From assembly GCA_024305405.1 (NCBI GenBank), contig JAKNDB010000087.1, positions 868,001 through 932,000 on the forward strand: DNA of 64,000 nt, written 5' to 3'. Positions 1 through 10,297 of this stretch are shown here, one piece after another. The DNA comes from Dirofilaria immitis. Its lineage: Eukaryota; Nematoda; Chromadorea; Rhabditida; Onchocercidae. The stretch's first letter is position 1; each line of letters starts with the position of its first letter. A program made the position numbers and the translations under genes. The notes beneath the pieces were generated by a model. That model was not told the DNA's origin, searched no databases, and saw only the letters and a list, made by a program, of their open reading frames with translations.

Positions 1-3000
1 TCTAAAATCAAACATAAAAAGTCTACATTTAGTTTCTGATAAAGAAGAAATAACGCATCAGTGCAAGAAGATAAAGCAGTTGCAGATACTTAGAAGAATA
101 AGATGAGATCGTCATTTGAATTATATTGATCTTCAACTTTCACTCAATATTTTGAAATGAGAAAACAGCGGGCTGTTTCTAGCTATTTTTAAGCTTCCAA
201 GGTGCCAACGTTTTCTTTCCGAACGTAACAAAACTTGGAGTGGATAATTACTTCTTTTCAGTCTCTATAGAATTCTTCGATTTCTTGTTTTTCGCACGAA
301 ACCTTTATATCGATAATATCTATAACACATCAACGAACGCAACAATTACAATATCAATGATACAATAAGACGCTTCTAATAACAAGAACGTGACTTTCTG
401 CATCCTAATGAACGATGCTTGTTGATATTTTTGTTCCAAATGCGGAAGCGAAGCCTACGTTTTCTCATCAGATTTCTTGGTTGAAACGCTCTTTTCATAG
501 CTTTTGCAAATATATTTAATTATTTTAGTTTTGGAATGACCCAAGGATGTCCGATATGCCATCCAATCGACTTCGTAAAGTATACCTAGCGTAATTGATG
601 TTGTTGATTAGGATCTTTCACATTATTCCGAAGTCAATTCTGCAGCTTACCAGAGTTATCGCCTGTATTTGGAGCGCATAAATATAATAACCAATATGAT
701 TTACAGCATCTTGATCTACATTTTAGTACATTTCTAGAAAATTACTTTATGAATTTTCATATTTTCTTTCACCAAGGGATTTCTTGCGATTTCAACGACA
801 CAAAGCATGCAGAAACTTCGAAATACCTTCTTAAATTTGTAATAAAAAAATAAACAGGCATGTTGATATTTTATTCCCATAAAAATATAAAGAAGCAACA
901 GTGAATCAATTTACCTGTGTGCCGTGACTATGTTTAGAATTTTATGCTGAAAAGAAAATTCTTTCGTTTTAGGAAAAATTTTTTGTTGAAAGTTTGTCTT
1001 TTATCGCTTCGCATTAGCAACATGGTTTGGTATTTATTATAGTTTTAGGAAACGATGAATTTCAGGCCGATTCTGATATCTTCCACTTTGGAATTATTAA
1101 TCAATGAAAATAAGCGGAAAGTGGTGAAATAGAGTAACCCAAAAAAGCATCATAATGAAACGAAGCCTAACTAGGCAACTTGGATTGAATTTAATAGAGA
1201 TCCTTGTTGACATTAAGTCGCACTTCTTCATCACTGCAATAGAAAAATAATGCAATGTAGCGAATGATCTTAAGACACTTCTGATGAATCGCTGTCAGTT
1301 TTTATTTAATGAATTCTTGATAGCCTTATAAAGCGCATGTTGTGATTCGAAATGCCATGATGCGAGAGGTAGAAGGCTGATATATTTTCATTGCCTGATA
1401 TCGAAGATTATCATTGCTATTTTCTATACCGATCAAAGTGATTGATAAGCACCTTTGTTCAAATTAGAGATAATATTAACTAGATAAATGGATTTCAACA
1501 ACTATTTTTTAATGACTTAATTCATCATAACAGTAAGTTAATGAGAAGGCTGTTGATAAATCGAAAAACTGTCGTACATAGATTTTGTATGCTAAAGTCA
1601 AGTCAGAGTGCAGCTCATCCGTTCTAGACATTTGTTTGAAAAATATCTTTTGAATCTCGACAAGTTTGCTTCGATCACACAATGTGGCATTGCTTGGGAA
1701 ATAAATCGTAAAAGATATAGTGATATAAAGCAGCATACAGTTTCTTTGTTCCAGAAATTGCACAACAACATTTTCCGAATCTTGACAAGTTTCCAAAATT
1801 GCATCTTTAAAGTGAATAATAGATTCTCAAGATATCTGCTATTTAATGCTACTGATATGTACCATTTCATGATTTCAAATCAACAATTGACTTTTACTTG
1901 TTAAAAATAAGGTGAATTTAGGTCGATTCATTCATTATCAATTAGATTGTGGTTATTTTCAAAAGATTATGTAAAGTTAATTTCACAGATGCATAATTCA
2001 ATAGTGCTTCAGAAATCCATTTTTGACCAATCATGCCGGAGGAAGGTCAGTTAGATGAAAATTACGCGATGAACCCTTGGGCAATATCATGATATTATCA
2101 TGGACGACATCTCAGAAAAACAAATTTTACTAGTATTCTATATATTTCCATAATATTTCTATTTCAAAACTATTTATAATTACATACATTTTTTAATATT
2201 AATCTATAATGACACTGTATGTTAATAAAATTTTCGAAAAAGTGATAATACGTTTACGTAATTTTAAATATGGAGATTCAGATTCACTCGTCAAATGAAA
2301 AATCAAGAGTTACTTATTGTCTATTCTCTTCATTCATTCCTCACATGAGAATAATTCAAAACTATCATTTATTCTGATGGAAAAATCTCTTTTCCTGTCA
2401 TCTCTTGTCTCCATATAAAGTTCGAGGCAAGATCTAAATTAATGCTGTAATCCATTAATATACAGGCTCTCATTTTAGCTATCTAATTCTTTTATTTTCA
2501 TATTGTTGAATGATTCAACATCTTCTGCTTATCGACTATTTCTCCTTTGAAATTCAAAGCTTCAAAGTTTAGCATCAAAAATTTATCGATTGAGAGAACC
2601 AAATATTTTCTAATTGCATGCAGAATAGACCATGAAAGAAAACTTTTCAGTAACATATGATGATGACTATCTTCATTTGTCAATTTCTGAATAACTTCTT
2701 ATTGATGATAATCATCACATGAAATTAGATATAATAAAAACGAATGGAAGAATACTGTGAATGACGGTAGTTACGATATCTGTCTTATTTTAGAGCAACT
2801 TATCTTATTTTTGATTTTAATATTGTCAAAATGCATTATCAGTGAATGATAACAACTTTCTGCTGGAACATAACTTTGAATTGCTTGGAAGAAAATATCC
2901 ATTTCATTGATCACAAACTATAATTATTTTTCAACATATTTCTTTCTACATTCGAAAATTCCTTTGAACATTTGATAGACAAATGTAAGCAAGATAACAC

Positions 3001-4086
3001 CTGTATTTTTCGTTCAAATTATATAAAAGTAAGAATGAGAAGAGGAAAAGTACAAACGATCCAAATCTATGAAAATGATCATGAAATATTGATTGCCTCA
3101 CTTTTAGTATTGTAAATGGAAGTATCAATCAAATTGAATATCGTATTTTCTAAATTAATACAATTATCTTTTTGAAGTTTACTGTTTGACCAATCGATAT
3201 CTTTTTTAGTTATATAGTAAAAAAAAGATATATAATGATAATAATTAAACACAATCAATTTTTAACAGATAATTCACAAATCATTTAATGGCAACATTCG
3301 TCTTTATAATGACTGAATGTTACCATTTTGTAGAACTTTGAAAATAAATTACTTAAATAGAAATAAAGTAGAAATTCCTTAAGTTCCAGGTAATAAACAG
3401 ATTAGTAGATTGATGAAGGAGAGATGTCCATTTATTCAATTATTTATAGACTATCCATTCTTACAGAAAAACAAGGCAAACTTCCATGATAATGTCAAGG
3501 TATTTGAAAGAATAATTTAATATGAACTATTGTTAATCAATTATTTCGACATTATATTTATACAAAAATTACTATTATAATTATCTTTGCTAATCAATTG
3601 GGCGATTTTATTCAGGAGATGCAAGCAATTTCATAAAAGTACAAATAATGATCAAGATATTTTATTTTACTCTTATAACAGATATACAATTTAACATTTA
3701 AATTAAATATATCAAAATTGAAATTTTTGATAAAATTACAAATATAATATCAATATTTGTTTCTTCATTAAACTTATTATTCTAGCATTAACAAATATAA
3801 ATAATTTCTGGAATGATTGAAACAATTTTATAGACTTAGAAAAAGCGATGAATCAAGTTTCAGCGTCCTATTAACAATTTCATAATCAAATTCATTATTT
3901 TTTCCCCGAAAAAATTTATGAAATTTTGATTTTAATAGCGACAATTCTAATCTATGATAATTTAAATTATTCAAAGATAAGATAATTGCTAATAAAATAT
4001 TACAAAAATATTCCAAATTATTTGTTAATAAATTAAAAATTCATAGCAAAAATAAGTTAATTTACTTATTTACCTATTATTATTAC

Positions 4087-4322: not shown

Positions 4323-4455
4323 TTAAATGAACTGGATGTATCCTGAATTATGAAGAAATGAGAAGAGATCTCGGTAATAATTACAGATATTCAATATTAA
4401 CAATTTTATCATATCGCTTATTAATACTTCGATTTCTTCCATCTGCGTCTTTTTG

Positions 4456-7400
4456 TTAAACTTTGCACCAACTTTTATCGCTTCTCGAAAACGTTCGATG
4501 TAACTGAAAACAAATTCAATCATCTTGGATATTAATATCATTAATAATAGTTTCATTCCATCCAGATGGAGTATGTTCTCGGCTATTCAACAAAAATAAA
4601 CTAATAGTCCGCTATGGTGTAAATTTTGCATGACCTTTAAATGAACAGATTTCTGCTTCAATAAGAGAAATTATTGTTTATTAATATTTATTTACTAGGT
4701 TAAGCCACTGCTTTATCAGATTGAAATATTCTCGTAATTCTTGAATTAAATTTGTTTATTACCTCTAGTGGTAAATTGTTAGCTGTATATGGTAAAGCGG
4801 AACGATACATTGGAGTAAAATGAACACTTTTTGAATATAATTCACCTTCTTCGATCATTATTTGACCTATAATCAGAAGTTGATATCATGAAAACTGGTA
4901 ACCATAAAAAGCTTATTATATATCCTGTGTATATTCTGCATCGTAGATGCATATATGAACGCCTAATTCTGACCTTAATAAATAGAGAAGATCAAAAAAA
5001 TGTATCGTAAGATTATTTATTGAAGTCAGCGTCAACATCGTGAGAATATCTCAATAATGGAGAAATAGTCAAAAATTTGAAAGTTCGAATTTCGTCATCT
5101 TACCGAGATTACTTGATGTAACGAGTGCTATCAAAGGTTTGCCATCCCGATTCGGACCGACTGTAAGGAAACCGTAATGTATGTGCTGATCAGTTGTGTC
5201 ATTTCTATTTATTGCTATTGATCTGAATATTTTGAATGATCAATAAAAAATTTAAAGTAATTATAATTCAGGAAATTGATCAATATAACTGAACAAGCGA
5301 TGATTAACCAACAAATGGATTGATTGAATATGAGAATATTGTAAATAAGAAATCACGGTAAGAGAAGGATTCCTGTAAATGATAGTAACTGAAAGGCAAT
5401 AAATTATTATTCCTATTTAACGAATTTATCATTTTGATCAAACAATATCTTATTGTTATTTAAATTTTAGAGAAAGTTTTAAGTTGAATTAGAGCTAAAC
5501 TAAGTCATTACGTAAGTTACGTGAAAAATTAAATTTTGATATGAGTGATTATTGTTATTTCAACATACGTGAAATTGATACTCGGTTTACCAAACATTAA
5601 TACATCAGCAACTGTAATTGCAAGAATTTCTGTATAGGATATCCCTTCGAAATCTGTCACATAATCTATAGTACGTGAACGTGTACCTAAATAAATCATC
5701 AATTGATTATGTTCATTTACAGTTTCTAAATTTTTCTCCTGTTGATACGTCTGATCTGTGAAGTTGAAGCTAATGATGAATAATATCAAGATGACAGTGA
5801 TATTTTTTACTTTTCAGACAAATCATTATATCAGTTTATCATTATTTCTAATTAACCACTTACCATTTATTTCAGCTTTCCATATACCAATCATCCAAGC
5901 CAATGGAAGTAAAACTGGAGCAAGTGGTTTGTTTGTTTTTACTAAAATTCATTTCTTATCATGGCGAGAATTTTAAAATAAAACGTCAAAAAAAAAAAAA
6001 CAATGAACGATTTTCACTACTATTCATCAATTATAAATTATTCCATTCTGATGAATTATTCCTTCTTATCTTTTTCAAGATTCATTAGTTAAATGCTTAA
6101 TTGATTAATTATATGATAAAACAAACCAGTCTCATTTGAATAAACACATTGTCCACAAGATACGGCACAACCAACATCAAAAAATCGTGTATGATCACGC
6201 ATTTGTTCACATTGACCTTGTTTCTTCCATTCATTGCAACTACCATAAATATCTTGGCAAGGCCCTTAAGCATATCGTTATCAGCAGCAAAGAAACAAAA
6301 ATTAAATCTGCTTTCAATAGATAGGAAAAAAAAATCCTAGCGATCATTATTTATCCTCAAATAATACGATATGATATGTTGAACAAATTTTATTAAAACC
6401 AACGATCACAATCTTTTCCCATCCATCCTGTTGGGCAGATACATAAATAATCGTTCCATTTATCAATGCATTTTGCACCATTTTTACAACGTCGAAAGTT
6501 GCATTCATTTATTTCTGTAGGCAAATAAATTTTGTATATTTTAAATTTTCAAATTAGGCTAGATAAGGTTGAATTATGAGATTGTTTGCCTAATTGAACT
6601 ATCATAATTGATTTAAAAGGTATTCATCTTTTGCGCATAAAGAAATAAGATTGATACAATTCATTTTATGCTATTATTAGTTGATAATCAAATTTTCGAT
6701 CATTATAATTGAATTGCATGAGAATATATTGTCTTCTGGATGAGATGGAACGTAGGATTTTTTTTTTTTTAAGTAAAATTACCGCGTTCACAATATTTGC
6801 CAGAAGCACCAAGTGGACATTTACAGCCCAGCTCACCGTTACTTTTTTCCACACAGGTACCATTTCTTTGCATAAATTAGGATCACATTTTCCTGCAATT
6901 GTTGCTAACAGCCCTTTCACAGAGATTATAATATCAGCATTTAGAATTTATCAACTTATCATTTTGCATTGAAATTGTTCTCGGTCTCGAATTTATTGCT
7001 TACGTAATAGATGGGTGTAAAAAAAAAATGTTTATAATATGAAAAGTGAATATGCAATGAAAAAGATGTGCAACTTTTTCGAAATCATGATAATAATTTT
7101 AAACTAATTATGATATGATAGCATTTTTAGATTCTTCTACTAACAGAGTATAAATGATCGGAAAAATTCATCATCTTTCAAGTCGGGATAATTGCTTGCT
7201 ATAAATTTAAATAATTTTTATAAAAAGTATCATCAATTGTGGGAACGAAAAGATGAAAGAAATCGGGAAAAGATTTGAAAATGTTATGATTCATGGATTC
7301 AACTTTATAAAGTTTCCAAAAGCCTAATTTAAGATAAAATTGTGTACCATTTATTTCTTATCTTTTCCGTATAGAAATCCCTGTCAATGATTCATATCCT

Positions 7401-10297
7401 GATTGCTTTGCAACGTTTGAAATTCAAATTATACATACCTAATTAGGTAAATAAATATCAAGAAATGCGAAAACGCACGTGTGCAGAATTTACCGGCGTA
7501 ATCCTTCCAACATGAGCATTCATAAGAATCCTTTAAGCTAACACATTTTCCCGATACACAATTATGTCCGATACAATGATCCTTCACTGAAATAAATCAA
7601 GAAAAAAACTTCGTTGAAATTTTTTATTTATTTGATAAAATGTTACATTTGCTGAAATATAACAATTCATTCGGAATATTATTTGTGCTGCATTGATTGA
7701 TAGATTACGGGAAATGATCGATCGATCAATCTTTCGCTTCACAAACATTACTATTATTAAATCAGAGGAAAAGACGGATAAATTCGAACTTTGACAGAGC
7801 GGACCAATCCATCCTTCTTTGCAGAAGCAAATAAAACCCATAGCTGTAGTGCTATCCAAACGACATTGTCCATTATTTTGACATGGATTATCGATACATT
7901 TATCTAAAAATTTCTTATCTTTTATCAAATAAATCAGCATTCTCTAAAAATTTCCACACACACATACACATACACATACACACACATATACACACACATA
8001 CATACACACACACACACGCACACTTACCCATTTGTACCACAGATTTCATCTTCATTTTTGTTTTGATCGATTCATTGTTTAGATCAGTCATGAAAATTTT
8101 TGGGAAGCGACCTCATAAATTTGTTCAATTTCATTCATTTTTCCATTGTGTAATTGTTGCCACGATACGGTAGTACGAATCAACGGTAATTCGGTTGTTT
8201 TAGAATTTTCAGATTCCCATAATTCAGTTGCAAATGGTATAATGGTTGACCAGGCTTTCTTGTTCACTTCTTCTTCAATTTCATTTTCATGATGATAAGC
8301 CAAATCTCGTAATGTTTCCGGAATAGCTCTTGAAAGAATAAACTTTAATCAAATTGAATAGTTAGCTATAGAAGATGAAGAATTGTGGATAAATTAGAAT
8401 CAGGCAAGAGTAAGTGAAATTATATCATTCCTGTTAATCAAATAATTCATTACCCGTTGTGTTGCATACATCAATTTTCTGAACTTATGTTGATAATGTA
8501 AAGATCGCTAGTGCAAGAATCCACAAAAAAAAACAAAATTAGCCTTAGCATTATCATTTGCAGCAATCAAATAATTTTGGAAAAAAAGATGAAATTTGAA
8601 AATTCGAAATGTTGATGATGCATTCCAACAATTCTATAACATAGAGATGGCATTTAGAGGAAATCAAAGGAAATTTTTGATCAGATGAAAATAAAAATTA
8701 GCAGTTTTACTCCAGCATGTTTCTCCTGAATAGTTTTTACCTTTGTAGTAAATGCTTTTCATGAATTGTATTTTGAGTAATACTTGATCTGTCTTTCCTG
8801 TTAGGTGACGTTTGATCCATTTTTGATCTATCCTTCTTAGTGATAGTAGTGAAATTTTTGATATTATCAGCAGCAGACACAGATCGCAAATAATGGCCAC
8901 TGAGCACTGATTCAGCAGGTCCTCGCTTTTTAGCTATAAAAAAAAAAAAAAAGAATTATATGTTTATGAAAAAAGTTGAAAGTATCAAAATCTTTCTTAA
9001 CTTAGGCTTTGCTCTAAAAAAATTGCTGCAATAGTTATTAAACTGTCGAATGAATTGTTTTGATTCTTTCGTAAATTATCTCATATCTTTTATATATTAT
9101 TTTGAAACAATTCGAAAGATTATTTTACTCAGATAATTTTTTTTTTTTTACAAATTTCTATGATTTAGAAAGGAAAAAAATAAAATTATTAATTTAGAAA
9201 AAAAACAAACCGGTAATTTTCATGGCTAATCTTTCATTATTGGTAAGATTGAAATGTTTTCCTTTCCAGGCGATAGGAATGATAAAGCCACTTTCTGGTC
9301 GCCATCTTTCCCAATAAATTTCATCCTCTTCAGCGATTGTTAACCTAGCAACATTAATTTTTTTTTTTTAATAATACTTTAAATGAAAGCTTAAATTAGA
9401 AAATGAACTGAAATTTCATTTATTCATAATTCCTAAATTATAATTTTGAAAATCAATCAATTTAGGTCGGGTTTCGAAATCTCACATATCTTTTCAGTCT
9501 TAAATGAACAAACTGTAAAGTTCAAAGTTGAGAGACTATTTCTTGTTATGAGCCGCCATGAAACCATCAATCAAAATTAATTCGTACAAAAAAAAAGAAT
9601 TTTCAACATATTTTTGTCCTTATCAAATGGCCATCGGATACGTTGAATGATAGTACTGCATCTGACATGGAATTCATTTATCCGTCAATTTGTGTGAATC
9701 GAAACAAAAATTCGAATTTAAAATATTTGTAAAATTTACATAAATTGAACAGCTCCAATATCTTCATCAGCAACCCATTCCAATTGTACGATGAATTTTT
9801 GCGAATCATCAGCATGCGTCACTGAATCTTGCCAACTTGAACCACGTATATTGCAATTCTGCATTCGAATTCCAAAATTTTCCCAGTTTTTATTCTCGAT
9901 AAAACGACCACCTTTTAATGAACCAATCAGAAATCCATTTTCGTTCGCCAGTCGCGCTTGTAGCAGTAAACCACGAAAATGCACAAAACCAATTAGACGA
10001 ACTGTAATATGAAAATAATTTTTGATTTTGTTATTTCCAATTCAATGTTTGATAAAAAAAAATAAATAATACTTACTGGTATAAACTTTTCCTGGTTCAT
10101 AATATTGTGTCACTTGTCCTCCATCATCCATAAAACGAAATTCGAAAGGTGGAGATATTTCTTGTGGCTTTCCATGTATCATTCGATTCATCCGCATTGA
10201 ATGACGCATCATACAATGAAAACCACTGAATTCAGTAAGAGCTGCTTGAAGATAATTCCAAAAGTTGTAATGATTAGCAGAATGATCAGCATCGTAC
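4456..10297 (-). CDS. Reeler / EGF / ShKT / nitrobindin-like multidomain protein (5' end not found)
   Basis: Fifteen exons read right to left: 10297-10077, 10001-9740, 9344-9211, 8933-8741, 8328-8028, 7903-7790, 7586-7479, 6892-6783, 6514-6400, 6310-6127, 5941-5864, 5755-5569, 5222-5104, 4866-4763, 4503-4456. All phases join, giving about 759 residues. Exons 1-2 form a Reeler domain (FRGLLLQARL, then DSVTHADDSQKF). Exons 3-5 are a charged linker. Four EGF-like modules follow, each with six Cys; the first begins DKCIDNPCQNNGQC. Next comes a ShKT module (CQDIYGSC...CAVSCGQC). The last five exons form a THAP4/nitrobindin-like beta-barrel (LPLAWMIGIWK, FGKPSINFT, MIEEGEL). Secretion is inferred from the Cys-rich modules; no signal-peptide exon was fixed, though 10540-10487 starts ATG, is hydrophobic and ends at a GTAAGT donor, out of phase. 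Frames break at about 8093-8101, 6867-6869 and probably 6262-6265, each a one-base run-length change. The last exon is the least certain; another frame runs on to 4323. Function is unknown. Confidence 0.75.
7958..8023. repeat. (CA)n/(CATA)n microsatellite in an intron
   Basis: Imperfect CA dinucleotide run with TA interruptions. It lies in the intron between the linker exon (8328-8028) and the first EGF exon of the Reeler/EGF gene, directly 3' of a good GTAAGT donor on the minus strand. Confidence 0.9.

What the first reader, a model, noticed from the sequence alone, without database searches (positions are those of the whole stretch)
4456..10297. Reeler + four EGF + ShKT + nitrobindin-like barrel in one predicted protein
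Seen: phase-compatible exons place a Reeler domain, four EGF-like modules and a ShKT module upstream of a beta-barrel aligning along its length with THAP4/nitrobindin (PLAW(M/I)xGxW, FGKPSINFT, YGFL, SSNLGxxMIEEGE). Known: Reeler, EGF and ShKT are extracellular modules, whereas nitrobindins are usually intracellular haem proteins. Inference: the barrel has been recruited to a secreted, Cys-rich scaffold, perhaps as a ligand-binding lipocalin-like domain. I do not know this arrangement from a described protein.
Basis: partly seen in the sequence, partly recalled or inferred. Interest (0 to 1): 0.75.

Follow-up and report, generated by a model that had tools for sequence, protein, structure and literature searches.

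The report
Secreted worm protein with nitrobindin barrel
A heartworm gene, probably the counterpart of the worm tail-shaping gene mab-7, encodes a secreted multi-part protein ending in a barrel related to a haem protein but lacking the amino acid that normally holds the haem.

Summary

It is not unique. In two searches 25 proteins carry Reeler plus barrel; the 22 with a named source are all nematodes. The nearly identical Dirofilaria immitis one is called "Protein male abnormal", pointing to C. elegans mab-7, a gene already in print (title only).

What seems new: (1) where human nitrobindin has the haem-iron ligand His155, this protein has Ser; of 26 family rows with a normal last strand, 2 have His. 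(2) The two other nitrobindin genes found in this genome keep that His, also follow a ShKT-like exon, and share three intron phases with this gene: an inherited extracellular ShKT-nitrobindin unit.

The window copy has frame breaks in four exons against an intact D. immitis record; error or broken allele was not settled.

The parts
10077..10297 (-). exon 1: ATG at 10292, signal-peptide-like stretch, start of Reeler; contains a frame break
   Evidence: acceptor TTTTCAG just upstream, possibly a spliced-leader site (inference)
9740..10001 (-). exon 2, Reeler
9211..9344 (-). exon 3, end of Reeler
8741..8933 (-). exon 4, linker
   Evidence: modelled as disordered (pLDDT under 50, P0005 residues 192-370)
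8028..8328 (-). exon 5, linker; contains a frame break
7790..7903 (-). exon 6, EGF 1
7479..7586 (-). exon 7, EGF 2
6783..6892 (-). exon 8, EGF 3; contains a frame break
6404..6514 (-). exon 9, EGF 4
6127..6264 (-). exon 10, ShKT
   Evidence: ShK 22.4 bits, cut-off 20.9
5864..5941 (-). exon 11, barrel
5569..5686 (-). exon 12, barrel
5104..5222 (-). exon 13, barrel
4763..4866 (-). exon 14, barrel
4381..4503 (-). exon 15, last barrel strands and stop; Ser at the place of the haem-ligating His; a short stretch is out of frame

Best explanation
This is the Dirofilaria immitis member of the nematode MAB-7 family: an extracellular protein made of signal peptide, Reeler, flexible linker, four EGF, ShKT and a nitrobindin-fold barrel. 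Shown: domain order, its conservation in nematodes, the predicted fold of an ortholog barrel, and Ser in place of the haem-ligating His. Inferred: it acts as a modular matrix or cell-surface protein of the epidermis, by analogy with mab-7 and male ray shape in C. elegans; Reeler, EGF and ShKT make contacts, and the barrel is a stable end module that binds a protein or a small hydrophobic ligand rather than doing standard haem-NO chemistry. The ShKT-barrel unit was probably inherited from an extracellular ShKT-nitrobindin gene; two relatives that still have the haem His remain in this genome.
Against: The C. elegans MAB-7 sequence itself was not among the named hits, so the link to mab-7 rests on a record name. 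The mab-7 paper's title says transmembrane, not secreted; hydropathy alone does not decide. Steinernema P0017 and Ascaris P0021 have His at the ligand column, as has Toxocara P0019 by eye, so loss is not general; Caenorhabditis has a His one residue earlier, beside a gap. A second pocket His is present in 35 of 35 rows. The full-length model is weak (mean pLDDT 60.1), and the Reeler part has no significant match to a solved structure by sequence (best E 0.28).
Confidence: 0.7

Rival explanations
1. The barrel still binds haem by another ligand, for example the His of the DQH motif, and works as an extracellular haem or NO binder.
For: Fold is that of nitrobindins; that second pocket His is in 35 of 35 rows; three relatives show His at the canonical column (P0017, P0021; P0019 by eye).
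Against: Ser, Lys, Arg or Leu at the iron-ligand column in 24 of 26 family rows with a normal last strand; no match of P0005 to NCBIfam peroxynitrite isomerase, and P0001 scores 22.3 against a cut-off of 225.
Confidence: 0.15
2. MAB-7 is a membrane protein with an uncleaved N-terminal anchor, and the barrel hangs outside the cell as part of a receptor or adhesion molecule.
For: Published title calls mab-7 product transmembrane (title only); N-terminal hydrophobic segment (1.83 in P0005).
Against: The segment is short, at the very N-terminus and directly before Reeler, as in a cleaved signal peptide (inference); cleavage was not tested with a dedicated tool.
Confidence: 0.25
3. The window copy is a pseudogene or broken allele.
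For: Frame breaks in exons 1, 5, 8 and 15; the assembly's error rate could not be measured.
Against: A D. immitis record has an intact, otherwise nearly identical protein (P0005). The breaks lie at or beside short A or T runs (by eye), as in long-read errors.
Confidence: 0.1
4. Two separate genes wrongly joined at the linker.
For: Long poorly conserved linker (10% identity to C. brenneri).
Against: 25 proteins of two searches hold Reeler and barrel together; three unnamed ones lie on contigs of 2367-2492 bases, hardly longer than the ORF, which suggests transcripts (inference).
Confidence: 0.02

Closest known systems
MAB-7 of C. elegans (Tsang et al. 2007; only its title was seen, in a reference list)
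   Same: The D. immitis near-identical record is named 'Protein male abnormal'; Caenorhabditis proteins of the same domain order were found
   Different: The C. elegans sequence was not compared; its published description could not be read
Human THAP4 nitrobindin domain (3ia8)
   Different: Ser instead of His155 in the window protein; extracellular modules instead of a THAP domain (THAP4 as nuclear protein: PMC6275384 passages)
ShKT-nitrobindin genes of the same genome (L004, L005)
   Same: ShKT-like exon directly before the barrel; intron phases 1, 2, 1 shared
   Different: Higher THAP4_heme-bd scores, 87.1 and 98.1 bits; haem His and FPTIPTFTYGE-type motif kept; no Reeler or EGF exon noticed by eye in the stretches read, which were not scanned for them

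Membership tests
Nitrobindin / THAP4_heme-bd (PF08768) | Pfam score above curated cut-off | tested here: met
   35.6-37.9 bits against 25 for window pieces; 34.3 for P0005
Nitrobindin / THAP4_heme-bd (PF08768) | Ten-stranded nitrobindin barrel | tested here: met
Nitrobindin / THAP4_heme-bd (PF08768) | Proximal His that holds the haem iron (human His155) | tested here: not met
   Ser in P0005 and in the window reading RNRSINKRY
Nitrobindin / THAP4_heme-bd (PF08768) | Binds haem and NO | not testable with these tools
   needs protein
Reeler (PF02014) | Pfam score above cut-off | tested here: met
   53.2 bits against 21
ShKT (PF01549) | Six-Cys ShK module above cut-off | tested here: met
   22.4 bits against 20.9; P0018 and P0017 fall just below, 18.0 and 20.3
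EGF-like (PF00008) | Four six-Cys EGF modules | tested here: met
   Two stretches in each of two pieces at max E 10; three stretches in P0005 at max E 1
MAB-7 | Orthology to the C. elegans mab-7 product | not tested
   C. elegans sequence not obtained; source name of P0005 only
Secreted protein | Cleaved signal peptide, no transmembrane segment | tested here: inconclusive
   Hydropathy: 1.83 at residue 1 and 1.44 at residue 570 of P0005; up to 1.65 inside the barrel of P0007

The most novel reading that the evidence does not exclude
Nematodes carry an old extracellular branch of nitrobindins built on ShKT modules. One branch (MAB-7) gained Reeler and EGF parts and, in several lineages, lost the haem-iron ligand, turning a haem/NO barrel into a structural or ligand-binding module of the apical matrix.
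Probability: 0.4. Interest if true: 0.65.

Novelty: new variant of a known kind. Interest (0 to 1): 0.5.

Why it matters
A gene family named for a C. elegans male-tail gene gets a concrete domain map whose last domain is a haem-protein barrel that in filariae lacks the usual iron ligand, so the barrel's role can be tested directly in a laboratory worm. It also places nitrobindins, whose function is called still obscure (PMC9599043, abstract in the listing), outside the cell and next to ShKT modules, with two related genes in this genome that still have the haem His.

Tried and rejected
Two-gene model: rejected, relatives are continuous. My first barrel exon start (5769) and a candidate last exon (4611-4516) were wrong; searches used the wrong start, and relatives corrected it. 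The full-length model was too weak to read contacts between domains. Reeler against solved structures by sequence gave only chance matches. NCBIfam gave nothing for P0005. A yardstick for the assembly's frame-break rate (HSP70 family in the own genome) could not be run: the genome search was busy. Paper searches listed nothing that I recognised as linking MAB-7 with nitrobindin or Reeler; I saw listings and a few passages only, and the library lacks most subscription papers, including the mab-7 paper. PMC12211885 (passages) describes a THAP4-like haem barrel in the rat flea, not ShKT-linked as far as the passages show. PMC4527844 was irrelevant.

Full report
WHAT IS THERE. Splice sites and phases on the minus strand give fifteen exons from 10297 to 4381: signal-peptide-like start and Reeler (exons 1-3), linker (4-5), four EGF (6-9), ShKT (10), barrel (11-15). 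Pfam passes its cut-offs: Reeler 53.2/21, EGF 29.9 and 39.8/21.5, ShK 22.4/20.9, THAP4_heme-bd 35.6 and 37.9/25. The ATG at 10292 lies five bases behind a TTTTCAG acceptor, perhaps a spliced-leader site (inference).

INTACT RELATIVES. A full-length search returned 27 proteins at E <= 1e-10 among 6507 candidates, and an alignment search 47 among 4708. By the precomputed Pfam column 25 distinct proteins have both Reeler and THAP4_heme-bd, 16 and nine new. Three have no source name; the other 22 are nematodes (filariae, Thelazia, Anisakis, Steinernema, Mesorhabditis, Caenorhabditis). No row named as a non-nematode lists Reeler or the barrel; those rows carry EGF-type domains and cover about 15-35% of the query. 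The search sees only relatives that share exact words with the query and have 0.55-1.75 times its length, so absence elsewhere is not shown. P0005 of Dirofilaria immitis, 'Protein male abnormal', is 97% or 98% identical to the window reading with X at the breaks, so the window is very probably D. immitis (inference). P0011, P0023 and P0032 are complete ORFs on contigs of 2367, 2456 and 2492 bases, hardly longer than the ORF, which suggests transcripts (inference).

FRAME BREAKS. Against P0005 the window is out of frame inside exons 1, 5 and 8 and over a short stretch of exon 15. An intact copy is in public records. Whether this is base-calling error or a broken allele was not settled, since the tool for the yardstick was busy.

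HAEM LIGAND. The proximal haem residue of human nitrobindin is His155 (PMC6275384, passages). In the profile alignment and in a MAFFT alignment of 32 family rows, human and two paralogs (P0003 and P0019 were dropped because the script did not find the barrel start) that column reads S 12, K 10, H 2, L 2, R 1, N 1, P 1, Q 1 and gap 2 in the 32. Six rows (P0002, P0004, P0035, P0036, P0038, P0039) have, by my judgement, a truncated or different end; in the other 26: S 12, K 10, H 2, L 1, R 1. The two H rows are Steinernema and Ascaris; of the dropped rows Toxocara P0019 reads H and P0003 reads S by eye. Several rows are near-duplicates, so these are not independent events. Caenorhabditis has a His one residue earlier beside a one-residue gap, so its loss is less sure. 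Human and both paralogs have H. A second pocket His is in 35 of 35 rows. The window protein fails the ligand test; this lowers 'haem nitrobindin', not 'nitrobindin-fold barrel'.

ORIGIN. Besides the window gene, which that search did not list, the own genome gave three PF08768 matches in two genes; only five candidates were scored, so this is a lower bound. Both genes have a six-Cys ShKT-like exon before the barrel: ShK 24.5 bits (above 20.9) and 12.9 bits (below). One has a signal-peptide-like exon upstream. In all three genes the ShKT/barrel intron is phase 1, the NFT/NYT intron phase 2 and the next phase 1; the last one is phase 0 in the window gene and L004 and was not placed in L005. In L004 one donor reads GC and one acceptor is unclear. 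Placing the introns as equivalent was done by eye. The pattern points to a common ShKT-barrel ancestor (inference).

FUNCTION. The C. [quoted passage not shown] elegans' (PMC11304992, passages); I saw only that title. A Heligmosomoides paper lists mab-7 under male tail development (PMC10225086, passage). P0005 has its strongest hydrophobic stretch at the N-terminus. Barrels of the family carry one to several N-glycosylation sequons, but human nitrobindin has one too, so this is weak support. Identity of P0005 to C. brenneri P0022: Reeler 48%, EGF 44%, ShKT 70%, barrel 34%, linker 10%; the modules are kept and the linker is not. A matrix or surface protein outside the cell is the best reading.

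VERDICT. Observation confirmed. The family is in databases and, through mab-7, known genetically. What seems new, within the searches named, is that its end domain is a nitrobindin barrel which in most family rows lacks the haem ligand, and that the nitrobindin genes found in this nematode are tied to ShKT modules.

Noticed in passing
L004:857-3382 (own genome C17, about 4.737-4.739 Mb): Second nitrobindin gene: signal-peptide-like exon, ShKT exon (24.5 bits), barrel (87.1 bits) with the haem His kept; one unclear acceptor.
   Followed up: partly
L005 reverse strand, about 1872-3380 of the reverse complement (own genome C61, about 0.79 Mb): Third nitrobindin gene: six-Cys ShKT-like exon (12.9 bits, below cut-off), barrel (98.1 bits) with the haem His kept.
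   Followed up: partly
window 4381-10297: Frame breaks in four exons of one gene; other genes of this assembly may need the same care. Rate not measured.
   Followed up: partly
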